A DNA stretch of 43,690 bases from Cyclobacteriaceae bacterium. GTDB taxonomy: Bacteria > Bacteroidota > Bacteroidia > Cytophagales > Cyclobacteriaceae. The translations under genes and the position numbers were made by a program. Below the pieces are notes generated by a model that saw nothing but the letters and a program-made list of their open reading frames with translations, ran no database searches and was not told the origin of the DNA. Of this stretch, positions 1,049-15,754 are shown in pieces. Within the stretch, counting starts at the first letter, position 1. Each line of letters begins with the position of its first letter. The stretch spans positions 1 to 43,690 of the forward strand of contig CANGUK010000007.1 of assembly GCA_947457095.1 (NCBI GenBank), read 5' to 3'.

Positions 1049-1069
1049 GGGTTTGATGAAGAAAGAATT

Positions 1070-1526: not shown

Positions 1527-1853
1527 TTAACTCTCTTTTCCCAAAATGCCGTCTATAAAATCCGTCACTTGTTTGGCTCTTTTATGATCGAGATAGACCC
1601 CATCTGCCTCCAGATCTTCCCCCCTGATGATCTTCCAGATCATCTTCCACCTTTCACTCCAGGGGATAGTCGAGGACTGCTTTCTTCCCGTATCCCAGAA
1701 GACTACATGGAACATGTTTTCCCCATTGTTCTCCTCAGAATAGTAGGAGATCTCCAAGCCCTCTGCGGCGCAATGACATTTTACAAATAACTCGGGAATC
1801 TGGTCCTTTTCTCTCCATCCCAATTCCGTCAATGATTCTCTTTTCTCTTCCAT
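1527..1853 (-). CDS. Small uncharacterised protein, phage/plasmid-type
   Basis: The product is 108 residues. Visible features are a CxC pair (C26, C28) followed by AAEGLEI, an aromatic beta-rich middle, and a WSERWKMIWKIIRGE segment (about 65-79) followed by a short helix with LDHKRAKQVTDFI. Small mobile-element proteins with a similar C-C / EGLEI / W-rich layout come to mind, but no function is known to me. It lies 3 nt downstream of the gene ending at 1857 and is probably cotranscribed with it from the minus-strand promoter at 2461-2468. Confidence 0.65.
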   Translation of the reverse strand: MEEKRESLTELGWREKDQIPELFVKCHCAAEGLEISYYSEENNGENMFHVVFWDTGRKQSSTIPWSERWKMIWKIIRGEDLEADGVYLDHKRAKQVTDFIDGILGKES

Positions 1854-1856
1854 AGT

Positions 1857-2351
1857 TTAATAAGATGAAGAATAGGTAGGAATCCCATAAAACTTGTTTA
1901 ACTCATTTTGCTTCACTTGAATCATTTCGTCAATTTGACCTTCAATCTTTCTTTTCGCTTTTTCCATGAAGTCGGCATTTGCGAATAAGGCTTCCACATT
2001 GTCTCCGTATTGGGAGGTGGTGCCCACAATCCCTCGCACATCCTTTGTGGCGATATTTGGTCGATAGCAGTTCATTCGAACATAGATGTATTCGCGCACC
2101 AAGCTGATTTTAATATCTCTGATGTTATTTTTAGCACGATGAAGCATGATTAATTCTTCCAATAAGGAGGCTAATTCTAACTCCCGTTGAATGGAATTAA
2201 CGGTGTCAATATATTCTTCCACTAACACTTCTGATTCGAAGGAAGAATTCATCATGTGCTCCTTATTCACAAAAGTTTCGACCGCACTTTTACGCGTTTG
2301 TGTAGCCATTAATTCTACAAATACTCCCTGGTTAATTTCTGCTGGTTTCAT
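1857..2351 (-). CDS. Uncharacterised helical protein, first gene of regulon site A leftward unit
   Basis: The ATG at 2351 gives 164 residues beginning MKPAEINQG; a GTG at 2414 in the same frame is possible but less likely. The protein is predicted mostly helical, charged, with no membrane segment and a KAKRKIEGQIDEMIQVKQNEL helix near the C terminus. I do not recognise the family. It is the promoter-proximal gene of a two-gene unit with the gene at 1527-1853. Its promoter is the minus-strand arm of the symmetrical element at 2461-2546, giving a leader of about 100 nt. Confidence 0.6.
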   Translation of the reverse strand: MKPAEINQGVFVELMATQTRKSAVETFVNKEHMMNSSFESEVLVEEYIDTVNSIQRELELASLLEELIMLHRAKNNIRDIKISLVREYIYVRMNCYRPNIATKDVRGIVGTTSQYGDNVEALFANADFMEKAKRKIEGQIDEMIQVKQNELNKFYGIPTYSSSY

Positions 2352-2460
2352 TCGTTTTGATTTAGTTACGTTTTTTTGGATTGAACTATTCGAGCACCCT
2401 TCTTGTATCCTCACCCACAGGGATCGGCACTTTTGGGGGTGTATTGTCGAAATGTGGATA

Positions 2461-2546
2461 CAAACTTAGACAACCAAAAAATAGCGTAAACGCATTTTGC
2501 AAGCTTGTAATTTGAGAGGAGGGGATTTTTTGAGGGGGTACCTTTG
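2461..2546. promoter_or_regulatory. Regulon site A: symmetrical divergent promoter around a palindrome
   Basis: The core TTGCAAGCTTGTAA lies at 2497-2510 and the shared 17-mer extends to 2513. On the plus strand a perfect -7 element TACCTTTG is at 2539-2546. On the minus strand a perfect TAAGTTTG is at 2468-2461. Both start exactly 34 nt beyond the first base of the distal TTG of the palindrome, so the unit is 86 bp and symmetrical about 2503.5. No TTTG stands at the usual -33 spacing in either arm, which suggests activator dependence. It serves the genes at 2638 (+) and 1857 (-). Confidence 0.8.
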
Positions 2547-2637
2547 TGGAAACAAAGCTGCGGCAGCGTATTGGTTAGTTCAATAAACCTACCTCCAAAG
2601 CGAAACACCCCTTTAACCACATTCAAACTTAATCCCC

Positions 2638-3024
2638 ATGCATGCACACTTAGCGAATATCCTGACTACCCTCCTGACCCCTTTAGGCTCTTTTTCTGCG
2701 ATGGAATACGAAGCCAGCGTTGGGGAGCCTTGGGACCTTTACTTTAGGGGACAACGGCTCTCTCACCTTTCGCCGGAGTTTTTCCGCACGTTTGAGGGCT
2801 ATTTTCTTCAAGAACTCTCCTATGCCGACATGCAGGTAGACGAGCTGCTCGACACCTACCTCGTAGTCAAAAAGATGGAGCTAAGTCGAGCTGCGCAGCG
2901 CGCAGAGGATTTCTGGACAGAGCTAGGGATAGAAAAATGTCAAGAAGGTACTGAGCCGGTCGAGAAACTCGTAAATCAGAACCTGGAGGAAGACTCAACT
3001 GGAAAAGATGATTTTTTCTTTTAA
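2638..3024 (+). CDS. Uncharacterised protein, paralogue of the protein at 11885-12346
   Basis: This 128-residue product aligns without gaps near its N terminus with the minus-strand protein at 11885-12346: LGSFSAMEYEASVGEPWDL here against VGNFSAQEYEKATGKAWNF there. Further on, DELLDTYLVVKKME matches DALLDLYLILKEME. The alignment supports the start at 2638 over the internal ATG at 2701. It is soluble, acidic and has no recognised domain. It is transcribed from site A (plus arm), about 85 nt upstream. Both paralogues are driven by the same type of promoter at opposite ends of the island. Confidence 0.65.
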   Translation: MHAHLANILTTLLTPLGSFSAMEYEASVGEPWDLYFRGQRLSHLSPEFFRTFEGYFLQELSYADMQVDELLDTYLVVKKMELSRAAQRAEDFWTELGIEKCQEGTEPVEKLVNQNLEEDSTGKDDFFF

Positions 3025-3202
3025 ACATCGAAAAGATCCCTCTTCAAAATTTTACCTGAATTCTCGAGAGGAGTTTTTATCTTAAATCGCTTATCGTCAA
3101 CGGAAGACAAACCACGGTTCACAGGCCGTCCATGGCTAACTTACTCAAACTTCAACACTTGCTTTTCCAAATCTCCATAACTAATCCAAAAACCACCGAC
3201 AC

Positions 3203-3532
3203 ATGAAATCATCAAATGCGATCCTTCGATTTGCCTCAAAAATTAACTCCAGCGTACCTTCCCGTATTGTGAAAGCCGATCTTTCCGCGTATGGGAGAAG
3301 TGGTTGGGTAACGGTTCAATTTGAGTACAAGGGAACAAGCCATTCCTATAAAATCCCATTTACGAGACCCTATATCAACAAGGAAAGGGGCGATTTTGCC
3401 AATCTGCTCAATCTCAACCAAAGTCGTTCGGACAACAACCTTGTCTTCCAAGAATTCATTGCCCAAGCCACCGCAAACTATACGGTGTATCCACAGATTG
3501 AGGTGGATTGTGTGATTGCGTTAAATGGGTAA
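3203..3532 (+). CDS. Uncharacterised 109-residue protein
   Basis: The product is small and basic, with alternating hydrophobic residues suggestive of beta structure (WVTVQFEYKGTSHSYKIPF, then YPQIEVDCVIAL at the end). There is no signal peptide and no recognised motif. It lies 178 nt downstream of the gene at 2638-3024 on the same strand and could be read from site A or from its own promoter; I see no clear -7 element in the gap. It ends 23 nt from the convergent gene at 3556. Confidence 0.5.
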   Translation: MKSSNAILRFASKINSSVPSRIVKADLSAYGRSGWVTVQFEYKGTSHSYKIPFTRPYINKERGDFANLLNLNQSRSDNNLVFQEFIAQATANYTVYPQIEVDCVIALNG

Positions 3533-3555
3533 GAGCCTAGTGAGGGCCACTTTAC

Positions 3556-3969
3556 TTAAAACATTCCCTCCTCTTCTTCCTCAGCAAATTCCTCCCAATC
3601 TAGGTTGGTGAAGGCTTTGGTGATCAGCTCCCGGATGGATGCCCCATCGGGACTGTCGACAAACCAAATGTAGTTCAACTGGGAGGTAGCGGCTGGATTT
3701 TGAATTCCCTTCCAGGAGACAAACTCTCCAAAACATACCCAGTAGGGCATGCTCACAGTTAGGTCCTTCGGCGTATCGATGGCTACCGCAGTCGAGCGCC
3801 AGTGCTCCGGAGGATCGAGGTGGTCCAGAACCATCTGATTCATCTTGGGTCCGGGTGTCCCTTCCAAGATTCCCTCATAAGTCATGCGAATGCGCAAGGA
3901 GGTCATTTGTACTTCTCTCCCAGAGGCAAGGGTAAATTTAAATTCGTTTTGATTCCAGATTTCGGGCAT
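3556..3969 (-). CDS. Uncharacterised acidic protein downstream of the caspase-like gene
   Basis: The ATG at 3969 gives 137 residues starting MPEIWNQNEF; an in-frame TTG at 4014 would add 15. The sequence is beta-rich (FKFTLASGREVQMTSLRIRMTY), contains a PYWVCFGEFVSW segment, and ends in an acidic tail EEFAEEEEEGMF. The fold reminds me of small immunity-type or accessory proteins of mobile regions, but I cannot name a family. It is the second gene after the caspase-like gene (stop at 4016), so both probably come from the minus arm of site B. Confidence 0.6.
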   Translation of the reverse strand: MPEIWNQNEFKFTLASGREVQMTSLRIRMTYEGILEGTPGPKMNQMVLDHLDPPEHWRSTAVAIDTPKDLTVSMPYWVCFGEFVSWKGIQNPAATSQLNYIWFVDSPDGASIRELITKAFTNLDWEEFAEEEEEGMF

Positions 3970-4015
3970 GGCATTCACGCGGTTGGGTGATGAAAGTCTT
4001 TCTAAAGTTAACAAG

Positions 4016-4582
4016 TTAGTGGGTTGAATAGTACAGCCTTTCGTGGTTGTATTGCGCTACAGGATTGCCCGCCTGGGCTAGCTGTCCGTAACTCGCTTTG
4101 ACCTGCTGGTACAGTTCGGGAATAGGAAGGTGGAGGCATTGGGATACGATGGCAGCAAAGTAGGCATTGGATTCATCTACCTCCTTTTGGCTCACCTTAG
4201 GTAGCCCGTAAGCGATAGCCTCGCCCACTTCGCTGACAAACATTCCTGTAAAGAACCCCGAGAGCCCAAATTCCCGCACATACTGGTCGGCATGGCACCA
4301 GATAAATAGGCTGTCTTTTTTTGCTTGCAGCAGCCCTACCGCCTGCTCATCGATGATGTAGGAGGGCCATCCAGAATTCTGAATCGTGAATTTATTCATG
4401 GACAGCAGTCCAAGAGGAGTTCCATGTCCCATCATCAGGACACGGTCATGCACCTGGATCAAGTCCAGCACCTCCTCCTTGGATCGATTGCCTTGTATGC
4501 GGGTTTGGTTGGGGATACCCGCATAGATGGGGTCCAGAAATGTAGTGGTCGAATCCTCCGGGTGGATAATGAGTGTATTCAT
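4016..4582 (-). CDS. Caspase-fold-like putative cysteine protease (His/Cys dyad)
   Basis: The start is set at the ATG at 4582 (188 residues, MNTLIIHPEDSTT), because the promoter -7 lies at 4636-4629 and rules out the longer frame that begins inside the palindrome. A beta strand leads into MGHG (H53), and about 43 residues later a second strand leads into FIWCHAD (C96). This strand-His-Gly / strand-Cys order is the layout of the caspase/CHAT fold dyad. FTGMFVSEVGEA and a C-terminal YNHERLYY follow. Similar uncharacterised proteins occur in enterobacteria and Bacteroidota. The peptidase role is inference from motif order. Confidence 0.6.
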   Translation of the reverse strand: MNTLIIHPEDSTTTFLDPIYAGIPNQTRIQGNRSKEEVLDLIQVHDRVLMMGHGTPLGLLSMNKFTIQNSGWPSYIIDEQAVGLLQAKKDSLFIWCHADQYVREFGLSGFFTGMFVSEVGEAIAYGLPKVSQKEVDESNAYFAAIVSQCLHLPIPELYQQVKASYGQLAQAGNPVAQYNHERLYYSTH

Positions 4583-4628
4583 GGGTGACAAACTCCTGGA
4601 TAAAAGGCCTGGGCCTACAGGAATGCCA

Positions 4629-4714
4629 CAAAGAAATAAACCAAAAATGAGGAAGTGAATAAAATTACAAGCTTGCAAATGGAGAGGCTCCCAAAAACAG
4701 GCTCCCTAATTTTG
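4629..4714. promoter_or_regulatory. Regulon site B: symmetrical divergent promoter around a palindrome
   Basis: The core TTACAAGCTTGCAA (4665-4678) is the reverse complement of the site A core. The plus-strand -7 is TAATTTTG at 4707-4714, for the DUF2130 gene at 4770. The minus-strand element at 4636-4629 is TTTCTTTG, one mismatch from TAnnTTTG, for the caspase-like gene at 4582. Both are at the same 34-nt offset as in site A, so the unit is again 86 bp and symmetrical. No -33 TTTG is present at normal spacing. Confidence 0.78.
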
Positions 4715-4769
4715 GGGCCTTAATCAGCGAATTAAGGGAACCAATTATTCACTCTAAACAAAAAAAACG

Positions 4770-6062
4770 ATGAGTCAACTTACCCAAATCGAATGCCCTT
4801 CATGTGGCAGCAGCATTGATGTACAAGATGTACTGTCCCACCAAGTGGAAGAAAAACTGAAGCGCGAATTTAAAGAAAAGTTGGAAAAAGAAAATGCTAC
4901 CCTTCAAAAAAAGGAGGAGGAGCTGGAGCGGAGCAAGCAGGAGTTTGCTGAAAAGCAGCGCCAGGCAGAAAGCTTGTTTCAAAAACAGCTACAGACCAAG
5001 TTACAAGAAATGAGTAAGTCCCTAGAGGCTGAGCTTAAGGAAAAAATCGCTCAGGAGGAGGCGGGTCGCCTGGAGCTTCTGGAGAAAGAGCTCAAGGAAC
5101 AATCTGAAAAGGTGAAGGAATTGAATCGCACCAAAGCAGAAATTGAAAAATTGAAGCGAGAGAAGGACGAACTCCAGGAAGCCGTAGAGGCACAAGCAGA
5201 AAAGCGAATCAATACGATTTTGGAACAGGAGCGGCAGAAAAACAAAGCCAGACTATCGGAAGAAGCCGAAAAAATTAAGCTGCAGGAAGAGGCCAAGGTA
5301 GAATTGAAGCTCAAAGAGCTTGAAAAGCAGCTTGCGGATCAAAAAAAGCTGACTCAGGAGATGCAGCGAAAGCAGGAGCAAGGTTCCATGCAGCTCCAAG
5401 GTGAAATTCAGGAGTTGGCCATCGAGGAGTGGTTGCAAACCAAATACCCCTTGGATTCCATAGTTGAAGTTAAAAAGGGAACAAAAGGTGCGGACTGCTT
5501 GCAGGTGGTGAATACCTACACCAGTCAGAATTGTGGTAAAATCTACTACGAAAGCAAGCGAACTAAGGAATTCAAAACTGCTTGGATAGGGAAATTTAAG
5601 GGAGACATGCGTGAAAAGGGAGCAGACATCGGCTTACTGGTAACCGAGACCATGCCCGCTGGGATGGAGCGAATGGGGATTGTAGATGGGGTATGGATAT
5701 GTACCTACGAGGAGTTTAAGGACCTTTCTTTCGTGCTGCGTGAATCGGTCATCAAATTGAACGAGGCCGTCAGTTCCCAAGAAAACAAAGGGGATAAGAT
5801 GCATCTCTTGTATGATTTCTTGACCAGTACCACCTTCAAACTGCAAGTGGAGGCCATTGTGGAGGGATTTTCGGGGATGAAAAATTCCCTGGAAACCGAA
5901 AAAAGATCCATGCAGCGGATTTGGAAGGAGCGTGAAAAGCAGATCGATAAGGTGATTGAAAACACGATCGACATGTATGGATCCATTCGTGGGATCGCAG
6001 GAAATTCGGTACAGCGAATTGATGCGCTGGAGCTTGCAGGAGGGCAGGAGCTATTGAATTAA
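4770..6062 (+). CDS. DUF2130 protein: coiled coil plus PD-(D/E)XK nuclease-like domain
   Basis: The 430-residue protein opens with a half zinc-ribbon (CPSCG, C9 and C12). A long charged coiled coil follows (about 25-215, Lys/Glu rich). Then comes the conserved DUF2130 domain: IEEWLQ (E219/E220), KKGTKGADC (D242), KIYYESKRT (E261-x-K263), AWIGKFKGDM, and ADIGLLVTE. The spacing E...D...ExK fits a PD-(D/E)XK-type active site, so nucleic-acid cleavage is possible, but activity is inferred. A second helical region forms the C terminus. It is read from the plus arm of site B with a leader of about 50 nt. Confidence 0.85.
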   Translation: MSQLTQIECPSCGSSIDVQDVLSHQVEEKLKREFKEKLEKENATLQKKEEELERSKQEFAEKQRQAESLFQKQLQTKLQEMSKSLEAELKEKIAQEEAGRLELLEKELKEQSEKVKELNRTKAEIEKLKREKDELQEAVEAQAEKRINTILEQERQKNKARLSEEAEKIKLQEEAKVELKLKELEKQLADQKKLTQEMQRKQEQGSMQLQGEIQELAIEEWLQTKYPLDSIVEVKKGTKGADCLQVVNTYTSQNCGKIYYESKRTKEFKTAWIGKFKGDMREKGADIGLLVTETMPAGMERMGIVDGVWICTYEEFKDLSFVLRESVIKLNEAVSSQENKGDKMHLLYDFLTSTTFKLQVEAIVEGFSGMKNSLETEKRSMQRIWKEREKQIDKVIENTIDMYGSIRGIAGNSVQRIDALELAGGQELLN

Positions 6063-6082
6063 GGGCCCTGAAATTTGGGATT

Positions 6083-6143
6083 GACAGCCAGGACTAAGGC
6101 GGTGCATGCCTTAGTTCCAGCTGTCTCCCTTCAATTTTGAAGG
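6083..6143. other. Two intergenic hairpins after the DUF2130 gene
   Basis: The first hairpin pairs GACAGC (6083-6088) with GCTGTC (6120-6125) and GGACTAAGGC (6091-6100) with GCCTTAGTTCC (6108-6118), leaving a 7-nt loop and small bulges. The second pairs CCTTCAA (6128-6134) with TTGAAGG (6137-6143). Neither is followed by a clear T-tract, so they may act as an RNA processing or attenuating structure, or be a small dispersed repeat, rather than a standard terminator. Confidence 0.5.
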
Positions 6144-6204
6144 AGGTAAAAATCACCCTTCTCAAACTAACCATCTACCTGAATACAATAAATCGTTTTT
6201 GAAA

Positions 6205-6984
6205 ATGGAAGACAGCAAACAGTGGATTAACGAAAGTTTAAAAAAATTCGGGTTTTACCCCGAGTTGACCTCGCCCAACTACATCAAGTTGATGAAAGCA
6301 AAAAAAGGGCTTGCCAAAGCGAATTCTTTTCTAGACCAAGTGGACATGATCTTGGCGAATAGTAGGGATCAAGAAACTGAAATAGCCAAATTGATTGGTG
6401 AGGATGAGGAGCTATTGAAGTTGGTGTATAGTACTGGAATACGGTATAGTGTTCATGTACTGAACTCCATCCTTGATGTGTTGGATGACTTAGAAGTAGA
6501 CCCAGCGCATATTCTGGAACTGGGGGCTGCGAATGGATGGGCCTTATCCCTTCTGGATGAATATTTTGACAATAGCTGTAAGCTAACCTTAGTGGAAAAG
6601 AACAGGGTGTGGAAGGCAGTGAGCCCGAAGTTCAATGTAGTAAATCTGAGCTATGAAGAATACGATACGGACACGAAGGCTGATTTGATTTTTACCATTT
6701 TTGGAGCACCCTATTTTGGATTTGAGGAGTTGGTCGCCTGTGTAGATAGAGCGCTGTCAGCGCATGGGTACTTTATTGCAGCACTACGCATCCCGGACGA
6801 CCTGATGCTCAGTAATTTTTTAAAACTGTGCGCAACTGCTGGTTTGGAGTTTGACTCAAAACGTTCCGGGCAACTAACAGTAAAGGCCCCCCATGGTCTG
6901 GAGCGGTTCCCAATTCTTGTTTTTAAGCGGGGCACATCAGTGGAGGAAGAACCGGTTGTATTTGATCTGCTTCGAGAGTTTTAA
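6205..6984 (+). CDS. SAM-binding methyltransferase-like protein
   Basis: The ATG at 6205 gives 259 residues; a TTG two codons upstream is also open. A helical N-terminal part (1-95) is followed by a Rossmann glycine motif ILELGAANGW (about 103-112) and an acidic residue at the end of the next strand (TLVEKN, E131), as in class I SAM-dependent methyltransferases. Later strands are ADLIFTIFGAP and YFIAALRIP. The substrate is unknown and the family not named by me. It lies 142 nt after the DUF2130 gene with two hairpins between, so cotranscription is uncertain. Confidence 0.65.
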   Translation: MEDSKQWINESLKKFGFYPELTSPNYIKLMKAKKGLAKANSFLDQVDMILANSRDQETEIAKLIGEDEELLKLVYSTGIRYSVHVLNSILDVLDDLEVDPAHILELGAANGWALSLLDEYFDNSCKLTLVEKNRVWKAVSPKFNVVNLSYEEYDTDTKADLIFTIFGAPYFGFEELVACVDRALSAHGYFIAALRIPDDLMLSNFLKLCATAGLEFDSKRSGQLTVKAPHGLERFPILVFKRGTSVEEEPVVFDLLREF

Positions 6985-7123
6985 TTCTAAAAATCTACTA
7001 AAAATTGAATACAAAATCCCTTAAGATACCCTCAGCAATGCCTTCTCTAGCAAATCCAAATGAGGTCTAACTCCTTAGTTATGAAGAGGTAATGCTCAGT
7101 TTGCTACGAGGAAAGAAGAGAAA

Positions 7124-7173
7124 TTACAAGCTTGCAATCTTCTGAAACGATAGTATTAATTCCCTGAAATTTG
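7124..7173 (+). promoter_or_regulatory. Regulon site C: one-sided palindrome promoter
   Basis: The core TTACAAGCTTGCAA is at 7124-7137 and the -7 element GAAATTTG (one mismatch from TAnnTTTG) at 7166-7173, the same 34-nt offset as at the other sites. The mirrored position on the minus strand (7095-7088) reads GCATTACC and is not a -7 element. The gene to the left (ending at 6984) runs rightward, so no leftward promoter is needed. It drives the three-gene unit starting at 7219. Confidence 0.75.
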
Positions 7174-7218
7174 CATCGTTGATTTGAAATTTATCCATTC
7201 ACCTAACCCAATTATCCC

Positions 7219-8214
7219 ATGTTCGTTACCATCGGAAAACACACCTACCTCGCCAATCCAGCCGTCACCCAGTACGATGACCTCCACCAGGATATCTTCT
7301 GGTACCTCTTGCAGCAGACGCAGGTAAATCAATTTGCTGGCCCAAACAGCCTTCGGGAATTTCTGATCCGCTACCTCTTAATCACCGAGCATCCCTTGCA
7401 CGAAACGGCCGAGGCCTTTATCGATGAGGGGCTGCTGATCTCCGGCACGATGGGGGATCAATCCTTCTCCTTTTACATGAAGGACCTTTTCCCTTTCCTT
7501 GGCTTTGCGGCTACCTCTGGGCGCTATCGGGTGCGTGGAAGATTGGATGAATTTGTCCAAAACTACCAAAGCAAAAAGTACTTGATTCGTCTCGAAACCA
7601 CGGAAGAGGGTGCCAATCAAATGTCCCAAGACCTGCTCGTATTAATTTTGGCTGGGGTAAAGAGTCTGGTATTGATTGACTCCCTAAACATCCACTTCCG
7701 GGAAGATTTGAGTCAGGTCAGCCAAGAGGAGATTGCTCGGGTGACGACGTTTGTGGATTACGTGATGCAGCAGATTCCGGATCAGGTATTTGAGGACTAC
7801 CAAGCAGCGTTTGGCGAGGCCATGAACGGCTACGAGGAATATTACGAGAAAGGGGAGGATGTTCGCTTCGATCCCTGGACCGATTTGCCCAAGGCCACTT
7901 TGATCACCTTGTTTGGACATATCTTGGGCGAGGAGCATCACCTCGTGCAAGAATTCCGCGATGCTGAGAATCCCGATGAGGATGTCCTGCATGACCTGCA
8001 GTTTGAGATTCCCTACATCAAGTTTGCTTATGGTGTCAAGCACGGTTACGTGACCTTGGATGACAACTGGTACTCCCCGCATCTAGAAAATTACTCTCCA
8101 AACTTTAACCTAGATCCCTTGGAGGAGCTAGCTGGTGAAGATGGGGAAGTGTACTCAACCAACAGCATCTACCAAGCCTACCGGATGGAAGAGTGGATTC
8201 ACCTAATTCCTTAA
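7219..8214 (+). CDS. Uncharacterised 331-residue protein, first gene of a three-gene operon
   Basis: The product is a soluble, acidic, mainly helical protein with no signal peptide or membrane segment. The N-terminal half contains a DLHQDIFWYLLQQTQ helix and the C-terminal half an aromatic, Asp/Asn-rich stretch ending NSIYQAYRMEEWIHLIP. I see no catalytic motif and do not recognise a family. The promoter is site C with a leader of about 40 nt. The next gene starts 22 nt after its stop, so the three genes to 9480 form one operon. Confidence 0.65.
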   Translation: MFVTIGKHTYLANPAVTQYDDLHQDIFWYLLQQTQVNQFAGPNSLREFLIRYLLITEHPLHETAEAFIDEGLLISGTMGDQSFSFYMKDLFPFLGFAATSGRYRVRGRLDEFVQNYQSKKYLIRLETTEEGANQMSQDLLVLILAGVKSLVLIDSLNIHFREDLSQVSQEEIARVTTFVDYVMQQIPDQVFEDYQAAFGEAMNGYEEYYEKGEDVRFDPWTDLPKATLITLFGHILGEEHHLVQEFRDAENPDEDVLHDLQFEIPYIKFAYGVKHGYVTLDDNWYSPHLENYSPNFNLDPLEELAGEDGEVYSTNSIYQAYRMEEWIHLIP

Positions 8215-8236
8215 AATTTTTCCAACCCACCACGTC

Positions 8237-8728
8237 ATGCAAAATACCAACAGATTAGCCTTCCTGAATCAAAAATCGGCTGAGCAATTGGAAGCCCTCT
8301 GGGAGAACACCTTTGCAGGAGCAGAAAATGACCGCCACGTCCATGCGCATGTGCCGCTGCAGCATGCCGTTCCCAATAAGTCCCTCCTTTTGGGTTTTGC
8401 GGCCAATAATCCCAGACTTTGGTTGATTCAGCGAATCGAGGATAATGCCATTCTGGGCTACGTAGTCCATGGGCAAATAGGTCCTTTTCCGAATAGTATG
8501 GGGATTGTGATTAGTCGGAAATTTGCCCGTCAGGGCTATGCGCTTGAAACGGGTCAAGAATTGCTCGCCTGGCTCAAGGTGGAAGGGAAAGCGGAGGTTT
8601 TTGCCAATTGCTTGGAATCCAACCTACCCATTATCGGTTTACTGGGACAGTTGGGCTTCGAGCAGCTGGGGCCTACCGGAAAAAGTTACGATGGTGTGAA
8701 TGAACTAAACTTTAAAAAGCAACTATGA
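8237..8728 (+). CDS. GNAT-family N-acetyltransferase
   Basis: The 163-residue protein has the GNAT layout. A central strand with MGIVISRKFARQGYALETGQELLAW supplies the acetyl-CoA phosphate loop (RQGYA) and the following helix. Then come EVFANCLESNLPIIGLLGQLGFEQLG, the typical late beta strand, Asn and FE turn of ribosomal-protein or amino-acid acetyltransferases. The substrate is not predictable. It is the middle gene of the site C operon and its stop overlaps the next start (ATGA at 8725-8728), indicating translational coupling. Confidence 0.75.
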   Translation: MQNTNRLAFLNQKSAEQLEALWENTFAGAENDRHVHAHVPLQHAVPNKSLLLGFAANNPRLWLIQRIEDNAILGYVVHGQIGPFPNSMGIVISRKFARQGYALETGQELLAWLKVEGKAEVFANCLESNLPIIGLLGQLGFEQLGPTGKSYDGVNELNFKKQL

Positions 8729-9480
8729 ATTGGTTAGCAGAGTTGACGCGAGAAAAAATCGAAAAAGGCCCTATTCCCCTGAAGGAACTTCTTGAAAATT
8801 CGCTCTACTATCCCTCCTCAGGATTTGATGGAGGGGTGGTTAAGGATTGCAATACGGTAGGGAATGATCATCAAATCACGAGTTTTATCTACTGTGATTA
8901 TGGGGTGGGAGAGCAGGCCTTCCTGAATCAAAGAGATTCCTTTTTGGGCTATGCCTGTATAGGTAATCGGCGCGTGTTCATGAATGAACTGCTGTCCAGT
9001 ACCTGGATCCCATCCCTCCCTCCAACTCTTAATAGGAAGGAGTACACCCTGTACAAGGACACTTGGAGGCCCTTTGTGCAGTGGGCAGTGTTTGAGCGAC
9101 TGCCTTCCAGAGATCGCACCCATGGTCCGGATCGATTTTCCTTGTTGTATCTAGGGGGTGAAGGCGTGGCCACCTATCAGGCCTTGTATTGGGGCAATAA
9201 ACAGCGGCCCAAGGCCTTGGCCATCATCCAACCCGGTCATGCTTTTGGACTCAACTGGACCAACTATACCGAGCAAGCCAGTCCCCTACACTGGGTGGTA
9301 AAAAACAATCCAGCCGGGGCGCCCTCAATGATTTATTATGGCGGGTATGGGCGTAATTACACAGATTTTTCCTGGACTGAATACAGCCCGCAACGAAAAA
9401 TTTCTCCCTATTACTACCCAGAATATGGATCCGTGATGGTGTATAAGTTGAATGGCTCCTCCAAAGGACTACAAGTCTGA
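8725..9480 (+). CDS. Uncharacterised 251-residue protein coupled to the GNAT gene
   Basis: The start overlaps the GNAT stop by 4 nt. The protein has LLENSLYYPSSGFDGGVV near residue 23-40, then SFIYCDYG, and a tyrosine- and tryptophan-rich C terminus. A similar LYYPxSGFDG / SFIYxDYG pattern occurs, as I recall, in uncharacterised proteins of proteobacterial accessory regions, so this is a wide but undescribed family. There is no signal peptide. The context (GNAT, caspase-like and nuclease-like neighbours under one type of promoter) argues for a joint role, not for a particular reaction. Confidence 0.65.
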   Translation: MNWLAELTREKIEKGPIPLKELLENSLYYPSSGFDGGVVKDCNTVGNDHQITSFIYCDYGVGEQAFLNQRDSFLGYACIGNRRVFMNELLSSTWIPSLPPTLNRKEYTLYKDTWRPFVQWAVFERLPSRDRTHGPDRFSLLYLGGEGVATYQALYWGNKQRPKALAIIQPGHAFGLNWTNYTEQASPLHWVVKNNPAGAPSMIYYGGYGRNYTDFSWTEYSPQRKISPYYYPEYGSVMVYKLNGSSKGLQV

Positions 9481-9705
9481 AGTTGATTTTTGATCAATTG
9501 GAAAAAATCATAAGGAGGAAAAGGATTCAATCCCCCATCACTTGATGCATCATAATGTGAATTTATCATTCCAGCTTTTTTCCTTGATTCGAAACTCCTT
9601 TACCTGCATTTCGAAATTCTTAATTCATCCACCTTTTCCACCTATTTACATATTTAATCTTCGTGAGCTGGTAGGATCTGGATCACTTAATAGAATTAAT
9701 TGACT

Positions 9706-9843
9706 ATGAGAATCACAACTACCCTCACTAGTTTTCTTAAATCCAAATGGTGTACTGTCAAAGCTGGCATACCTACTTTCATTTATTTTTTTTCAGGTTC
9801 TGCTTTAGCTTATGAAGCTAAGAATCAATCTATACAGCTATGA
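9706..9843 (+). CDS. Small peptide gene (45 residues) coupled to the VWA gene
   Basis: An ATG at 9706 opens 45 codons that stop at TGA 9841-9843, overlapping the ATG of the VWA gene (9840) as ATGA. The peptide has a basic N-terminal half (FLKSKW, K19), then a short hydrophobic stretch GIPTFIYFFSGSALAY (21-36), and a polar tail. It could be a weak signal/anchor peptide or a leader that couples translation. The exact 4-nt overlap and good start context support a real gene; conservation would decide it. Confidence 0.5.
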   Translation: MRITTTLTSFLKSKWCTVKAGIPTFIYFFSGSALAYEAKNQSIQL

Positions 9844-10436
9844 AGGTGCCTCTAAAACTCACCTACTATTTAGTGTTAGATGCGAGTAGTAGTATGGATA
9901 GTAGCCTAAACATTATAAAATCTCGTGTTGGAAGCCATCTAAAGCAACTTGAGGCATGGAAGGCAGCTCATCCGACTTTAGGATTGGAAATTAGCTTTTC
10001 TACGTTCAATCAGGATTTTGTTCTCCAAGAGCCGAGTTCAGATTTTAAAAAACTGAAGGTTAGTTTAAAAAAAATCAAACCTGACGGGAAATCTGCTCTT
10101 TTTGATGCCCTGGGGGAAGTTCTGCAAAAAATTCAGGTGGAACAAAATCAAGAAGCAGCCTACTCTAGGTATTGGTTGCTTTGTTTTTTGACGGATGGAA
10201 TTGATAACTCTTCTCAAAAATTTACTACGCTGCAACTTAATGGAATGTTAGAAGTATTGAACGCCATTTCCTCACCCAGTGTATTTAAGGGGGTAGTTTT
10301 AGGAACCTTACCTATGGGGGTAAAGGGTTTAGACTGCCTAGATTTGGATGAGTCTAGCACTGAATTTAGCATTGAGTTAAAACTTTCATTTACGTATTTA
10401 GAACAGGTCATTCGACAGATTTTTTCTTTGAAATAA
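9840..10436 (+). CDS. von Willebrand factor A domain protein
   Basis: The 198-residue product is a single VWA domain: YYLVLDASSSM gives the MIDAS DxSxS motif (D14, S16, S18), PDGKSALFDAL (S85) takes the place of the usual Thr, and WLLCFLTDGIDN supplies the second Asp (D119). Such domains bind a metal ion and mediate protein-protein contacts, and in TerY-type proteins they sit in stress or conflict operons. There is no signal peptide, so it acts in the cytosol. It is the second gene of a peptide-VWA-467-residue-protein unit, 58 nt before the third gene. Confidence 0.8.
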   Translation: MKVPLKLTYYLVLDASSSMDSSLNIIKSRVGSHLKQLEAWKAAHPTLGLEISFSTFNQDFVLQEPSSDFKKLKVSLKKIKPDGKSALFDALGEVLQKIQVEQNQEAAYSRYWLLCFLTDGIDNSSQKFTTLQLNGMLEVLNAISSPSVFKGVVLGTLPMGVKGLDCLDLDESSTEFSIELKLSFTYLEQVIRQIFSLK

Positions 10437-10494
10437 CATACTTTTAGATTATCTAAGTAATTTTAGTTTAGGTAATTTCTTAATTGTAGCGCTT

Positions 10495-11898
10495 ATGTCA
10501 AACAGGATAATCCTCACTTCTGAAGAAAGAGATCATGTAAAATTGCAAGAAGTTAAGGAGGTGCTAAAGTCAATTCCAGGCAATTTTTTTACATACGAAC
10601 CCAAAAAAAAATTGGATAAGCTCTTCATTAAATGGACTCATGGAGATGTTCCTGTGAAGAATGATTTTTTTGATTCAATGAATGAGTTCAGGCATCAGGA
10701 TAAACTGGACAGCTCGGATTACCTTATTTTTTTGACAAGCCGAAAGATCCCAGGGGGTTTTTTTAATGGAATTCAATTCCAACAAAAAAACATATTTATT
10801 GACCTTGAAAATTGGGAGCGGCTTTATTTAAAAGGTTCCCCGGATCGTTACCCTATTGCATTCCATGTGTTGATTTCGGTTTTGATCAACCATTACTTTT
10901 CCATTGAGGAAAAGGCGTTAAAGGCCTTACACTTGGTCGATAAAGGATGTATCTTAGACTTTAATGGACATAAGAACAAGGTGGATTTGAAGATTCTTAC
11001 TGCAAGGATTTGCCCTGACTGTTTGACTACCTTACTCGAAAATAATCCTGACACCAATTTACTTGCTTATTTTAGGTTTGGCATCGAACGAATTAGGCAG
11101 GATATCGTCAACGGCGAGTATTACAAAAAAATAGCCCCTAAACCTGTTCGAGTTTACCTTAAGGAGGCGTATAATAAAAGAACTGGGTACAAGCTTGAAT
11201 TCGATGGAATAGGGGATTTAGATTTGGATCCAATTTGTTTGACTGTATACCTCAATTTTTTAAGAAAGAAGAAGGAAGGAATTCGTCTTCATAAAATAGA
11301 TCAGGACTATTATTTTCTTCTTGAATCGTATAATAAATTTACTCGCTTATCAGACTCCGAGGAGGAAGCCGAGGAAATAATTGAAGATTTGTTGATTAAG
11401 GAAGAGAAGTTAAAGAAACAAACGATAACTATTCAAGGAAATCCTCCGCAAGTAGCAAGAGAAATTAGTTTATACGAAGCTGCGATAAAGATTTTGAATA
11501 AAGAATCAATTGATCCTAAATTAAAAGATAATCCAAAAGTTAAATCAGCTATCGAGGTAGTAAGTCAATTAAAAAAGGAAAATAAAGCAGCCGAAAGAAG
11601 GAAAATTAAAAAGAAAAAAAACGAGAAATCAATTTCTAAGTTGAGCAAGCTAAAGATTGAAAATTGTCAATTTAAAGAATTTAAGAACAATGCATTAAAT
11701 GAGAAAATTCATTTGATTAATGAGGAGTTATCTAAACTTTTAGGGACTTTTGGCCTACAAGAATTTTATAGAATTGAAGATCGAGGAAGAGAAAAATTTG
11801 GAGTGAGTTCGGAAATTGAATTTGAAGATCCTAAAGGCCTAATAAAATCAATTACCACCAAAATTGAAAAACTAGATCCCATAGTTATAACAAAATGA
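10495..11898 (+). CDS. Large uncharacterised protein with Cys motif, operon partner of VWA
   Basis: The 467-residue protein has an alpha/beta N-terminal part (SSDYLIFLTSRKI near 74-84; NIFIDLENWE near 99-108). A cysteine-containing segment follows at about 146-180: HLVDKGCILDF...KVDLKILTARICPDCL with C152, C173 and C176. This resembles a GCxxDF/ICxxC module seen in other uncharacterised bacterial proteins and may bind zinc. Residues about 290-430 are Lys/Glu-rich and probably coiled coil. The local base composition is notably AT-rich compared with the genes to its right. Function unknown. It overlaps the convergent gene by 14 nt. Confidence 0.6.
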   Translation: MSNRIILTSEERDHVKLQEVKEVLKSIPGNFFTYEPKKKLDKLFIKWTHGDVPVKNDFFDSMNEFRHQDKLDSSDYLIFLTSRKIPGGFFNGIQFQQKNIFIDLENWERLYLKGSPDRYPIAFHVLISVLINHYFSIEEKALKALHLVDKGCILDFNGHKNKVDLKILTARICPDCLTTLLENNPDTNLLAYFRFGIERIRQDIVNGEYYKKIAPKPVRVYLKEAYNKRTGYKLEFDGIGDLDLDPICLTVYLNFLRKKKEGIRLHKIDQDYYFLLESYNKFTRLSDSEEEAEEIIEDLLIKEEKLKKQTITIQGNPPQVAREISLYEAAIKILNKESIDPKLKDNPKVKSAIEVVSQLKKENKAAERRKIKKKKNEKSISKLSKLKIENCQFKEFKNNALNEKIHLINEELSKLLGTFGLQEFYRIEDRGREKFGVSSEIEFEDPKGLIKSITTKIEKLDPIVITK

Positions 11899-12346
11899 AA
11901 AATGCGCTAATAAGTGAGGATTGGCATTGATTATTTTTCCACGCATCTAGCAATAAAGTTGATTTCGATGTTAGGGATTGCATCCCCTTTTCGCTCTTGG
12001 AGCAGAGCTTCTTAAAGCCTCGCTCCTCACAAAATGGCGTAGTCTGAAGTTTGTCTTGGTAGTTTTCCATTTCCTTAAGGATGAGGTACAGGTCCAGCAA
12101 AGCATCCTGATCCTCCTTCAAGAAGATATAGAGGATGGAAAAAGTAAAGTAGTCATCCTCGATAAATTTATTTTTATAGGTGATCGATTTGAATTCATTT
12201 TCCCCGAAGAATTGAATTTCCATATCATCGTAAGTGAAATTCCATGCTTTGCCGGTAGCCTTTTCGTATTCCTGGGCAGAAAAATTGCCTACACGAGATT
12301 TATGGGTAAGTACAGCATCAAGAAGTGAGGTGTTGGTGTCTTTCAT
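11885..12346 (-). CDS. Uncharacterised protein, paralogue of the protein at 2638-3024
   Basis: The ATG at 12346 gives 153 residues (MKDTNTSLLDAV); upstream codons of the same frame lie beyond the promoter -7 (12418-12411) and cannot be translated from it. Matching segments with the 2638-3024 protein are FSAQEYEKATGKAW near the start and DALLDLYLILKEMENY in the middle. The C terminus is extended and ends in a hydrophobic SAFFILL. It is the leftward gene of site D. Function unknown. Confidence 0.65.
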   Translation of the reverse strand: MKDTNTSLLDAVLTHKSRVGNFSAQEYEKATGKAWNFTYDDMEIQFFGENEFKSITYKNKFIEDDYFTFSILYIFLKEDQDALLDLYLILKEMENYQDKLQTTPFCEERGFKKLCSKSEKGMQSLTSKSTLLLDAWKNNQCQSSLISAFFILL

Positions 12347-12410
12347 TTGTGATTGAAGTTGGTAAGGATTTGGTGAAATTTCTTTCTGGGGGTGTAGTTG
12401 CTCGATTTTC

Positions 12411-12496
12411 CAAAAGTACTTTTGGATAAACAATTGAAGAAGGAATTTGCAAGCTTGTAATTTTCAAGGCTTGCCAAAAAAAGTTTCCGAATTTTG
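12411..12496. promoter_or_regulatory. Regulon site D: symmetrical divergent promoter around a palindrome
   Basis: The core TTGCAAGCTTGTAA is at 12447-12460. The minus-strand -7 TACTTTTG (12418-12411) is a perfect TAnnTTTG for the gene at 12346. The plus-strand GAATTTTG (12489-12496) has one mismatch and serves the metallopeptidase gene at 12519. Both are at the 34-nt offset, so the unit is 86 bp and symmetrical as at sites A and B. The two promoter positions also settle the starts of both flanking genes. Confidence 0.8.
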
Positions 12497-12518: not shown

Positions 12519-13052
12519 ATGCTTTTAGCCCTATTTCCCTCGCTCTCAGAAAAAGAATGCATCGCTATCTGGTGTGCCTGTGCTGCCTTGTGGCTACTCT
12601 GGGTGCTTAGCGATTGGCTTGGTGGGAAATCCAAGGGCCCAGCAAGTTCATCCATCCAAGCGGTGCGCGTGCCCAAGGTGGTCTTTGCTCGGGAGGTGAT
12701 CCGCTGGTGTATGCAGCACTTGGGGCTGCCCAAGGGAAAGAAGGCGGGTCCTCGCCTCCTGCTGCGCTACTACCGCCACCGAAAGGTGATGGGCACCTAC
12801 CAGCAGCGCTCCAAGACCATCACGCTGTATTGGGGGAGCCATGCGAGCTTGAAGGAAGTGGTCAACACCCTCATTCACGAGTACCAGCACTTCTTGGATA
12901 TCCGGACCAACCAGGAAGATAAGGCCTACGACAAGGAGCTGAAGCAAATTGGCTACCAAGACAACAGCTACGAAAAGCGCGCACGGCAGGTCGCCGATCG
13001 CTGGGAGAAGGCTTGCCTCCAAGAGTTGGCTCAGAAGGGGCTGATGAAGTAA
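12519..13052 (+). CDS. Membrane-anchored HEXXH zinc metallopeptidase-like protein
   Basis: The ATG at 12519 gives 177 residues; in-frame codons upstream overlap the promoter and are not used. An N-terminal membrane segment (about 14-33, CIAIWCACAALWLLWVL) is followed by a basic region and the zincin motif in TLIHEYQHFLD (H120, E121, H124). A Glu in NSYEKRARQVADRW (E152) is a plausible third ligand, as in SprT/ImmA-like peptidases. The predicted role is proteolysis by a membrane-tethered enzyme, substrate unknown. It is read from site D, about 20 nt upstream, and is followed by the small gene at 13084. Confidence 0.7.
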   Translation: MLLALFPSLSEKECIAIWCACAALWLLWVLSDWLGGKSKGPASSSIQAVRVPKVVFAREVIRWCMQHLGLPKGKKAGPRLLLRYYRHRKVMGTYQQRSKTITLYWGSHASLKEVVNTLIHEYQHFLDIRTNQEDKAYDKELKQIGYQDNSYEKRARQVADRWEKACLQELAQKGLMK

Positions 13053-13591: not shown

Positions 13592-15754
13592 TTACAAAAC
13601 ATTTCCAAGTCTGATCAAAAGCGAATAGAAATTCAAATTTACTTTCTCTTCTTCGGTCACCTTGCCATCGGCATTGGCGAAGTCATTCATAAAGCGAATG
13701 ATGTCCTCCCGAACCGCCTCATCGGGAATATTCGCGTGGAGCACCAAGCAATTTTCACTGACTAACTCAGCAAGCTCCTTGAACTTAAAGGTGGTTTTAC
13801 ATTTTTTGAGCAGAGCTAGGGTATCATCGAGCGCTTCCAAGCATTCGTCCTCGTCCATGTCAAACCAATCCCCCATGGACACGGCAGTAGACTTGATGTC
13901 CGCGAGTTCCTCGGACGTGTACTTGTCTAATTTCCACCCTACCTGCAGCAGGACAAATAGGATGCAATGTGGAATCGAAGTGATATCCAAGGTTTTATTG
14001 GACTTGTCAAGCGTATAAGGGCTGTCTTTTTTCTTCTCCTTCGCTTTTGGGACGGCCTTCTGTTTCTTTGGAGCAGGCGCTTGAGTTTCGGCTTCTAATT
14101 CCCCCATCAATTCTTCCAGTTCACTCGGAATCCCTACCGAAGAAAGATCAAGGACCCTGACGCCCCCAAAAATTTCTAAGTAATCCTCTAGAACAGGATT
14201 GTTGGTGTAGGTGCTGGGATGGAAATCTACCTTTACATGGTCCAGGAGAACTTGCAAAATTCCCTTGTTCCATTCCGAAGAAAGTTCCTTCCAGCGTTCC
14301 AAACAGAAGGTATGAAAGCCTGCCCGATTGTATTCTACGTTGAAAAACTGGAATATCTCATACGCCGCATTGTCCTTAAATCCGCCAACAAGTTTTTCGC
14401 CTAGCGAGGCGTTTTGGGTAATCAGCGTAAAAATTGCTCTTGCAGCATTTTTGTCCATCAATTTGATATCTAGCCCTGCATCTGGTTCATCCCAGAGGAT
14501 AAAATCATACAGGATCAGCCCCAACTTTTCTTCGTTGCTTAGTTGGTCAAAGTTGCCCGATGCTTTTAGCAGCAGGGCGTTTACCTCCACTCCATACTTA
14601 GCGAAACGGGTATGTGCATTCTTTTTTAGAACCTCTTCGATATGATCGACATCTAGCTCTGGCCTCGCTTTGAGCATCAAGAACAATGGAAAATACCGGT
14701 CTTGGGGAGCCAATGAGCCGCCATAAGACTCCGATTCCTCGAGCATATCCCCCAAGTACATGAAAAATTCAAGGGTGTCTAGAAAGAGGCCTTCATTGCA
14801 ATGTTCCAGGAGGTCATCGACTATCGTTCCCAATCCACAAATGTATTCAATGTGAGTGCTGTAGGACTTGTCGTAAATTTCTTCAGCTTGAAGCATGGGC
14901 CCCAGCAAAAGGGCTTCAATCAAGTTGCCATCTTCATGAGCAAGACGGAACAGTTCATTTGTCATTCGAGGAACTACTGCCGCCTTCGTATACTCTCGCA
15001 AGGTATGCTCGTATGCGCCTCGATAGGTTTTTGATTTAGGGGAAAGGCCAAGGTAATAGTTGCGCACCTGTTGAACACAGGTAAGGAATGCGATGGGATC
15101 ATCCAAGCAGCGATCCGAGTCATCAACCTGGGAGAGGTCGGCGGGTTTTCCCTTGGGCAAATTTGCTGCTGGCGTTTTGGGAGCGGGTTCCCTCTCAAGA
15201 CCAAAGGTGGACAGATCAAAGGGATCCGAATCGGGTTCGGACTTTCCCTTTTGTGGGGCTGCTTTAGGAGCATCTTTCTTTCCCACTGCTCTTCCTTCCA
15301 GATCAAATTCGGTCAAATCGAAATCAGAAAGTTCATCGGCCTTGGAAGGGCTTGCCGCTGGTTTTTCTTTTTTCGGTTTTGGAGCCGATTTACTTGGAGC
15401 CGCCTGTTCTTTTTTTCCTTTTCCACCCAAGCTTTCTACAAAGGCAAAAGCTGCATCACAAGCGGCATCCACTTTTTTCCACTCTGGATTTCCCTTCGGA
15501 CGCAGCCCTTGGCTATAGGCTTCCAAACCCCCATTTTTGGCTAAGACTTGTTGGATAAAGTCGGCTTCTCTGCAATAAAAGCCCAGCTTAATGGAGCCAC
15601 CTGCGGTGTTAAAAAATAGGTGAGTACCTCGTTTGGAATGGACGCTTGGAAGGTGGATATCCACATAGTTGTCCTTGTTTACTTTTTTGACTTCAGCATC
15701 TGGAAATTTCGTTTTTATCCTTTCTGCAAGCTGATCTTGAATTGTCTTAGCCAT
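13592..15754 (-). CDS. Large TerB-like protein, single-core paralogue
   Basis: The 720-residue protein has four parts. The N-terminal domain (1-110) runs from MAKTIQDQLAERIK to AACDAAFAFVESL. A Pro/Lys/Ser linker (about 111-210) contains DFDLTEFDLEGRAVG. A helical core follows (about 212-530, from DDSDRCLDDP to NNPVLEDYLEIFGG). The C-terminal domain (about 575-720) has CILFVLLQVGW and FMNDFANADGKVTEEEKVNLNFY, an ADGxVTxEE helix turn like TerB/TerB-like domains. It is a close paralogue of the 1280-residue protein at 17129-20971. TerB-type domains are linked to stress and phage-resistance contexts; the job here is unknown. The upstream one-TM gene is 37 nt away. Confidence 0.7.
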   Translation of the reverse strand: MAKTIQDQLAERIKTKFPDAEVKKVNKDNYVDIHLPSVHSKRGTHLFFNTAGGSIKLGFYCREADFIQQVLAKNGGLEAYSQGLRPKGNPEWKKVDAACDAAFAFVESLGGKGKKEQAAPSKSAPKPKKEKPAASPSKADELSDFDLTEFDLEGRAVGKKDAPKAAPQKGKSEPDSDPFDLSTFGLEREPAPKTPAANLPKGKPADLSQVDDSDRCLDDPIAFLTCVQQVRNYYLGLSPKSKTYRGAYEHTLREYTKAAVVPRMTNELFRLAHEDGNLIEALLLGPMLQAEEIYDKSYSTHIEYICGLGTIVDDLLEHCNEGLFLDTLEFFMYLGDMLEESESYGGSLAPQDRYFPLFLMLKARPELDVDHIEEVLKKNAHTRFAKYGVEVNALLLKASGNFDQLSNEEKLGLILYDFILWDEPDAGLDIKLMDKNAARAIFTLITQNASLGEKLVGGFKDNAAYEIFQFFNVEYNRAGFHTFCLERWKELSSEWNKGILQVLLDHVKVDFHPSTYTNNPVLEDYLEIFGGVRVLDLSSVGIPSELEELMGELEAETQAPAPKKQKAVPKAKEKKKDSPYTLDKSNKTLDITSIPHCILFVLLQVGWKLDKYTSEELADIKSTAVSMGDWFDMDEDECLEALDDTLALLKKCKTTFKFKELAELVSENCLVLHANIPDEAVREDIIRFMNDFANADGKVTEEEKVNLNFYSLLIRLGNVL

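What the first reader, a model, noticed from the sequence alone, without database searches (positions are those of the whole stretch)
2461..12496. An undescribed regulon: exact 17-nt palindromic operator with -7 elements at a fixed offset, used symmetrically for divergent genes
Four intergenic sites (cores at 2497-2510, 4665-4678, 7124-7137, 12447-12460) share the exact sequence TTGCAAGCTTGTAATTT in one orientation or the other. A TAnnTTTG-type -7 element starts exactly 34 nt past the distal TTG in seven of seven places where a gene starts: TACCTTTG and TAAGTTTG (A), TAATTTTG and TTTCTTTG (B), GAAATTTG (C), GAATTTTG and TACTTTTG (D). At A, B and D the divergent unit is exactly 86 bp and mirror-symmetric. 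None of the arms has TTTG/TTG at normal -33 spacing, unlike the rpsP promoter in the same window. The palindrome would be centred near -48, where a dimeric activator could replace the -33 contact. The genes served are nearly all of unknown function and include caspase-like, nuclease-like and metallopeptidase proteins, so this may be one coordinated system.
Basis: seen in the sequence. Interest (0 to 1): 0.92.

Follow-up and report, generated by a model that had tools for sequence, protein, structure and literature searches.

The report
Shared switch of a defence-like gene island
A 14-letter DNA sign placed at one fixed distance from the start signals of many unknown and defence-like genes recurs in two families of Bacteroidota bacteria, which points to one undescribed protein that switches these genes together.

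Summary
The core TTRCAAGCTTGYAA occurs five times in the window's genome (four in the window, one before an AAA+/M41 protease gene), with no other site within one mismatch. Related genes in G002, G007 and G011 carry seven more sites. One contig each of two genomes of another family (G363, G389) carries thirteen, eight of them within 54 kb of a 677-kb contig. Over these 25 sites (50 arms), exact TAnnTTTG -7 boxes occur only 41 or 42 bases from the palindrome start (22 arms), at no other offset from 14 to 99. Seventeen chance palindromes show none. It is therefore a real operator/promoter module, centred near -47.5. The operator is directional: the -7 lies on the GCAA side in 10 of 10 asymmetric sites of the second family. 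A missing -33 is not diagnostic, because other promoters of the genus lack it too. Most likely a dedicated dimeric activator drives a stress/defence island. It is not identified; a WYL-domain regulator is the leading candidate. The SOS XRE-S24 repressor and NarL/LuxR proteins are unlikely.

The parts
2497..2510 (.). Operator A, TTGCAAGCTTGTAA
4665..4678 (.). Operator B, TTACAAGCTTGCAA
7124..7137 (.). Operator C, TTACAAGCTTGCAA
12447..12460 (.). Operator D, TTGCAAGCTTGTAA
2461..2468 (-). -7 TAAGTTTG of A, left arm (GCAA side)
2539..2546 (+). -7 TACCTTTG of A, right arm (GTAA side)
4629..4636 (-). -7 TTTCTTTG of B, left arm (GTAA side; one mismatch)
4707..4714 (+). -7 TAATTTTG of B, right arm (GCAA side)
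7166..7173 (+). -7 GAAATTTG of C, right arm (GCAA side; one mismatch)
   Evidence: the left arm has none and faces no divergent gene
12411..12418 (-). -7 TACTTTTG of D, left arm (GCAA side)
12489..12496 (+). -7 GAATTTTG of D, right arm (GTAA side; one mismatch)
1527..2414 (-). Unit A-left: Mrr_cat-like protein (1857-2414, start codon uncertain) and 108-aa protein (1527-1853)
   Evidence: Mrr_cat 18.9 bits, below cut-off 21
2638..3532 (+). Unit A-right: 128-aa protein (paralogue of 11885-12346) and 109-aa protein
3556..4582 (-).
4770..6984 (+). Unit B-right: DUF2130 protein (4770-6062) and 261-aa protein that looks like a methyltransferase by eye (6199-6984)
   Evidence: DUF2130 E 4e-72; no Pfam hit for the second
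7219..11898 (+). Unit C: 331-aa unknown (7219-8214), GNAT (8237-8728), 251-aa unknown (8725-9480), vWA-like (9840-10436), 467-aa unknown (10495-11898); co-transcription of all five is an inference
11885..12346 (-). Unit D-left: small protein, paralogue of 2638-3024
12519..13052 (+). Unit D-right: protein with HEXXH motif, SprT-like below cut-off; the ORF listed from TTG at 12447 begins inside the operator, the real start is probably ATG 12519 as in the G011 orthologue

Best explanation
The 14-bp dyad TTRCAAGCTTGYAA is the operator of one dedicated DNA-binding protein, probably a dimer and probably an activator. It holds housekeeping-sigma RNA polymerase at promoters whose only other conserved element is the -7 box, 41 or 42 bases from the dyad's start (centre near -47.5 if TAnnTTTG covers -12 to -5). 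The operator has polarity: the GCAA half faces the main promoter. In the window's clade the opposite arm was also recruited for a second, usually weaker, divergent promoter. The genes served form a compact, lineage-variable island of stress/defence-like proteins: AAA+/M41 protease, DUF2130, vWA and an HEXXH protein in the window's clade; UvrD-type helicases with nuclease domains, a DprA-family protein and an ADP-ribosylglycohydrolase in G363/G389. Shown: operator, fixed offset, cross-species and cross-family conservation, polarity, gene content. Inferred: a protein binds; it activates rather than represses; the genes are co-expressed; the role is defence or stress. The regulator is not identified; a WYL-domain protein is my leading candidate.
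For: Only 5 sites at up to 1 mismatch in 2.47 Mb, 4 of them in 10 kb. 12 sites in G000/G002/G007/G011: 14 of 24 arms have exact TAnnTTTG at 41/42 and none at any other offset 14-94; 22 of 24 have at least 5 of 6. The 2 that lack it (window 7124 left, L020 6646 left) face no divergent gene. Controls: 17 non-redundant chance palindromes, 34 arms, 0 with 5 of 6; one more, in G072, also none. Orthologous spacers of unit C have diverged to chance (22% identical) while all 14 operator bases are kept. G363 contig: 8 of 8 sites, and G389 contig: 5 of 5 sites, have a -7 (5 or 6 of 6) on one side only; 10 of these 13 sites were found without requiring a -7. Each of the 13 -7 boxes faces a gene. Polarity. 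The G363 site cluster also holds homologues of the window's DUF2130 (41%), vWA (25%) and 467-aa (25%) proteins, type III R-M genes and other PADLOC matches. WYL genes: one ends about 210 bp before a G389 site; two lie divergent to AAA+/M41 genes in G043 and G060.
Against: No gene that I recognised as a likely regulator stands directly beside the sites in G000, G002, G007, G011 or G363 (the nearest are the HTH_17 partner of a PIN protein at window 593-1072, and a BTAD/TPR protein 3.5 kb from the first G363 site; not every neighbour was scanned). The G389 WYL protein has no match in the window or in the G363 contig. The AAA+/M41-WYL intergenic regions of G043 and G060 hold a different dyad (RCGACA-N5-TGKCGC, seen by eye), so those WYL proteins probably read another sequence. 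The DUF2130, vWA and 467-aa homologues of G363 and G389 are not themselves behind a -7 arm, and in G389 the first two lie 20 kb outside the site cluster; nor do sites precede the type III R-M genes. Sequence alone cannot tell activation from repression, and no expression data exist here. 35 of 50 arms have at least 5 of 6 matches, 22 of them exact, so 13 rest on a one-mismatch box; orthologous arms are not independent. L020 4261 left has a 5-of-6 box with no recognised gene behind it. The AAA+/M41 operator's second arm has a -7 with no protein gene close by.
Confidence: 0.72

Rival explanations
1. The dyad binds a repressor that keeps defence-like genes silent until infection or damage, as BrxR and RptR do.
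For: Two studied regulators of defence islands are repressors: BrxR (PMC9122601, abstract and passages) and RptR (PMC12255303, abstract and passages). CapW is recalled as a third; its paper PMC9122588 was seen only in a listing. Gene content looks defence-like.
Against: The operator (about -54 to -41) does not overlap the -7 box, and the tight 41/42 spacing suits contact with polymerase better than occlusion. RptR sites overlap the -10 box.
Confidence: 0.2
2. It is the SOS operator of the Bacteroidetes LexA-like (XRE-S24) repressor with a shifted motif.
For: An Elizabethkingia SOS regulator binds TTAC-AAATT-GTAA (PMC8565304, passages), which resembles TTAC-N6-GYAA.
Against: In this genus dinB is preceded by a different shared dyad, TGTTTA-N5-TAAACA, in 7 of the 7 dinB loci looked at, in most of them beside the 231-aa XRE-S24 gene; XRE-S24 genes occur in genomes without the site.
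Confidence: 0.05
3. The dyads are copies of a mobile or repeated element (MITE, REP or recombination site) that happens to carry promoters.
For: Near-identical 17-mers clustered in 10 kb.
Against: Spacers between dyad and -7 are unrelated between arms (mean identity 0.29 over 14 arms). Sites are absent elsewhere in the genome. Sites persist at orthologous promoters and in another family.
Confidence: 0.02

Closest known systems
DriD, a homodimeric WYL-domain activator of Caulobacter (preprint PMC12340889, abstract and passages)
   Different: DriD sites are 20 bp and overlap -35; here 14 bp centred near -47.5, in front of Bacteroidota -7 promoters. No WYL gene was shown to act here.
BrxR, a WYL regulator of defence islands (PMC9122601, abstract and passages)
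   Same: One regulator with repeated operators in a defence island.
   Different: BrxR is a repressor with 11-bp repeats spaced by 5 bp and two operators in its island; here the operator recurs before many transcription units and no regulator gene was recognised in the window.
Bacteroidetes LexA-like SOS regulators (PMC8565304, passages)
   Same: Short dyads, one of them TTAC-N5-GTAA.
   Different: The likely SOS dyad of this genus is TGTTTA-N5-TAAACA.
vWA-MoxR-FtsH ternary conflict systems (PMC7159879, passages)
   Same: vWA, FtsH-type and peptidase proteins with unknown partners.
   Different: No MoxR protein among the proteins I scanned (not searched for in the genome); their FtsH protein has two AAA+ copies, the AAA+/M41 protein here shows one AAA+ match and a ClpB-like small domain.

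Membership tests
Bacteroidota sigma-A promoter | TAnnTTTG -7 box | tested here: met
   22 of 50 arms exact, 35 of 50 with at least 5 of 6 at offset 41/42
Bacteroidota sigma-A promoter | TTTG near -33 | tested here: not met
   Not conserved at the arms, but not enriched in 94 other promoters of the genus either
DriD-like WYL activator regulon | WYL regulator gene linked to the regulon | tested here: inconclusive
   Linked in G389 and to AAA+/M41 in G043, G060; none seen beside the sites of the own genome; own genome not searched for WYL
DriD-like WYL activator regulon | fixed distance between site and -10/-7 | tested here: met
DriD-like WYL activator regulon | site overlaps -35 | tested here: not met
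   Dyad covers about -54 to -41 by the -12 to -5 convention of PMC9723704
Bacteroidetes LexA/SOS regulon | same dyad before dinB or the XRE-S24 gene | tested here: not met
NarL/LuxR regulon | GerE-domain protein in the site-bearing genomes | tested here: not met
   PF00196 at E 0.001 not found in G000, G002, G011, one hit in G007; genomes 78-91% complete
CRP/FNR, MarR or XRE regulator specific to the regulon | a family member restricted to site-bearing genomes | tested here: not met
   None in the clusters of the loci that I held, which are most but not all matches; a shared global regulator of these families is not excluded
Known anti-phage system | PADLOC match of the window's own regulated genes | tested here: inconclusive
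   Only weak, partial matches; the G363 island has strong ones

The most novel reading that the evidence does not exclude
One dedicated, polar operator, read by a still unknown (perhaps WYL-type, DNA-damage-sensing) activator that works from about -47.5 without a -33 contact, switches on whole defence islands as a unit in at least two Bacteroidota families, perhaps three. In the window's clade it drives both strands from one dimer, and beside the AAA+/M41 protease it also makes a short terminator-ended RNA.
Probability: 0.35. Interest if true: 0.8.

Novelty: new variant of a known kind. Interest (0 to 1): 0.62.

Why it matters
How defence islands are switched on is poorly known, and the two island regulators whose papers I read in passages (BrxR, RptR) are repressors. 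Here one operator with strict geometry tags many separate transcription units. It can serve as a bait to find the regulator and as a search pattern for undescribed defence or stress genes in Bacteroidota, and it makes activation from -47.5 at a -7-only promoter directly testable.

Tried and rejected
Regulator by phyletic pattern: HTH_Crp_2, MarR_2, GerE and HTH_3 in site-bearing and site-free genomes (clusters of the held loci in 62 and 92). No protein group is restricted to site-bearing genomes; the one group flagged, in G002 and G007, looks like an antisense ORF. Literature: the string TTGCAAGCTTG was found in 54 papers, 20 listed, none about such a regulon by title. Searches for Bacteroidetes promoters with activators or divergent palindromic operators found nothing relevant (no papers; two unrelated). 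Structure: the 331-aa model is useless (pLDDT 40); the 'caspase' model is weak. Phages: no relative of the 331-aa protein. Viral contigs: 14 contigs with the 17-mer (12 distinct sites), none with a -7 at 41/42; 0 with the composite pattern. Plasmids: only the M41 part matches, in 2 Methylocystis records.

Order-wide composite pattern: 390 genomes, 39 with a match, 45 matches of which 5 are in the own genome, against 10 for the reversed control. Of the 40 outside the own genome I examined the flanks of 32. Four are full palindromes: G363 and G389 (followed up), G367 (inside an ORF, -7 match at offset 43) and G436 (family f11; intergenic, symmetric TTGCAAGCTTGCAA with TACTTTTG at 42 facing a gene: a possible third family, but a single site found by the -7 itself). 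G363's second match has one mismatch. The printed letters of the other 8 show that they are not full palindromes. This pattern tested offsets 42 and 43, not 41, so it misses many sites and the spread in the order is underestimated. The list was cut, so some degenerate matches were never seen; the four listed full palindromes outside the clade (G043, G057, G061, G072) lack a -7.
Full report
Observation. The window is contig C7 of a 2.47-Mb, 83.6% complete genome. The nearest relative with a name, G002, matches by contig number, length and position the record VGMU01, titled 'Bacteroidetes bacterium isolate K_Offshore_40m'.

Fifth site. A search of the own genome with up to one mismatch to TTRCAAGCTTGYAA gives five sites and no others. 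The fifth, C58:348-361, stands before a gene for an AAA+ protein with an M41 peptidase domain.

Relatives. Of 38 genomes, six have the palindrome: the own genome, G002 (5 sites), G007 (1), G011 (1), and G024 and G032 (1 each, without a -7). In G002, G007 and G011 the sites stand before orthologues or family members of the regulated genes: HEXXH protein 74-83% identical to the window's, 331-aa protein 74%, DUF2130 89%, caspase-like 78%, AAA+/M41 86-89%, small paralogue family about 32-43%. Over these 12 sites and 24 arms, exact TAnnTTTG occurs at offset 42 in 11, at 41 in 3 and nowhere else from 14 to 94; 22 arms have at least 5 of 6 matches. The two without it, left of C and left of its G002 orthologue, face no divergent gene. 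The promoter of unit C shows what is selected: 14 of 14 operator bases kept, spacer identity 22%, offset kept. Other orthologous spacers are more alike (for example 96% at B-left), so they say less. Seventeen chance palindromes elsewhere (5 genomes, 12 distinct viral sites) give 0 of 34 arms with 5 of 6; G072 adds two more empty arms.

Second family. The order-wide composite pattern led to G363 and G389, genus g95 of family f13. I then scanned one contig of each completely for the bare core. G363 C2 (676,781 bp) has 8 sites, all between 440,079 and 494,344; G389 C54 (246,064 bp) has 5. All 13 have a -7 with 5 or 6 of 6 matches at 41/42 on exactly one side, and that side faces a gene. Three of the 13 had been found with the -7 as a condition; the other ten had not. 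Over all 25 sites, exact -7 boxes occur at 41 (8 arms) and 42 (14 arms) and at no other offset from 14 to 99. The rest of these two genomes was not scanned. A single site in G436 (family f11) may be a third case.

Polarity. All ten asymmetric sites of G363 and G389 have the -7 on the GCAA side. In the own clade, leaving out the symmetric G007 site, exact -7 boxes are at 10 of 11 GCAA-proximal and 3 of 11 GTAA-proximal arms (p 0.0075). The 'mirror-symmetric' unit is thus symmetric in spacing but not in strength, and divergent use looks like an addition in the window's clade.

Position. In Flavobacterium psychrophilum TAnnTTTG covers -12 to -5 (PMC9723704, passages). By that rule the dyad covers about -54 to -41, centre -47.5 (offset 42) or -46.5 (offset 41). 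The missing -33 is no argument: 94 other TAnnTTTG-plus-ORF promoters of the genus show TTG at -33 no more often than at control distances, and PMC7366714 (passages) says that no -33 motif could be identified in F. johnsoniae.

Genes. The own regulon has DUF2130, GNAT, weak vWA, weak Mrr_cat, weak SprT-like, M41 and many proteins without any Pfam match. Partners recur: homologues of the 137-aa protein lie divergent to AAA+/M41 homologues in G047 and G052, and WYL-WCX regulators lie divergent to AAA+/M41 genes in G043 and G060. In G007 the AAA+/M41 gene lies near TerD and TerF-like vWA genes. The G363 site cluster carries homologues of DUF2130 (41%), vWA (25%) and the 467-aa protein (25%), though none of the three is itself behind a -7 arm there, and in G389 the DUF2130 and vWA homologues lie 20 kb outside the cluster. 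The cluster also holds a type III restriction-modification pair and MkoA- and STK-like proteins (not directly behind sites), and site-bearing genes for a UvrD-PDDEXK helicase (best PADLOC match GajB), a DprA-family protein (best PADLOC match ShosA; DprA is also a housekeeping family) and an ADP-ribosylglycohydrolase. This supports 'stress/defence island' but proves no function.

Short RNA. The second arm of the AAA+/M41 operator has TACCTTTG (G000, G002) or TACTTTTA (G007) at 41, followed after about 25-30 bases by a hairpin of 9-10 pairs and a run of 4-5 T, conserved in the three species with pair-keeping changes. An RNA of about 55-60 bases is my inference; the fold z-scores are modest (-1.4, -2.7, -2.5) and Rfam gives no match there at its gathering scores.

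Regulator. Families tested by presence: GerE not found in G000, G002, G011; Crp, MarR and XRE members among the held loci are not restricted to site-bearing genomes. The dinB loci of the genus have their own dyad TGTTTA-N5-TAAACA (7 of 7), so the SOS repressor is unlikely. WYL is the best lead: a WYL-WCX gene ends about 210 bp before a G389 site that serves a UvrD-type helicase/nuclease gene. WYL proteins regulate defence islands as repressors (BrxR) and damage genes as activators (DriD), and DriD offers the right mechanics: fixed distance, poor promoters, asymmetry, a bidirectional promoter. Against it: the WYL-AAA+/M41 intergenic regions of G043 and G060 carry another dyad (RCGACA-N5-TGKCGC, by eye), and the G389 WYL protein has no match in the window or the G363 contig.

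Verdict. The cis-element is established beyond reasonable doubt by sequence (about 0.95). Activation is more likely than repression (about 0.7 against 0.2). A coordinated defence/stress role is likely (about 0.6). Identity of the regulator is open (WYL about 0.35).

Noticed in passing
L019:3370-3464 (-) and L021:39-133 (+): SAM-I/IV riboswitch matches (Rfam RF01725, 48-49 bits, gathering 41.1) before the 280-aa unknown gene that neighbours the AAA+/M41 gene in G000 and G002.
   Followed up: no
L058:3274 and L060:941: Shared dyad RCGACA-N5-TGKCGC between divergent WYL and AAA+/M41 genes in G043 and G060; looks like the operator of those WYL proteins.
   Followed up: partly
[quoted passage not shown]
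   Followed up: partly
window 13592-15754, 17129-20971; L019:3551-6082: Large unknown proteins of 720, 1280 and 843 aa; the 720- and 843-aa ones share an N-terminal domain of about 130 aa (55% identical), and the 1280-aa one begins alike by eye.
   Followed up: no
L245:5150-6079, L247:6512-7462: FtsZ-like proteins (by eye) of 309-316 aa beside a site in G363 and G389; a gene that looks like a histone-deacetylase-family enzyme by eye stands one gene further on.
   Followed up: no
window 40-1072: PIN-domain protein with an HTH_17 partner next to the regulon, a probable toxin-antitoxin pair.
   Followed up: no
L298:1092-1105: Symmetric TTGCAAGCTTGCAA in G436 (family f11), intergenic, with TACTTTTG at offset 42 facing a 169-aa unknown gene: possible third family with the module.
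   Followed up: partly
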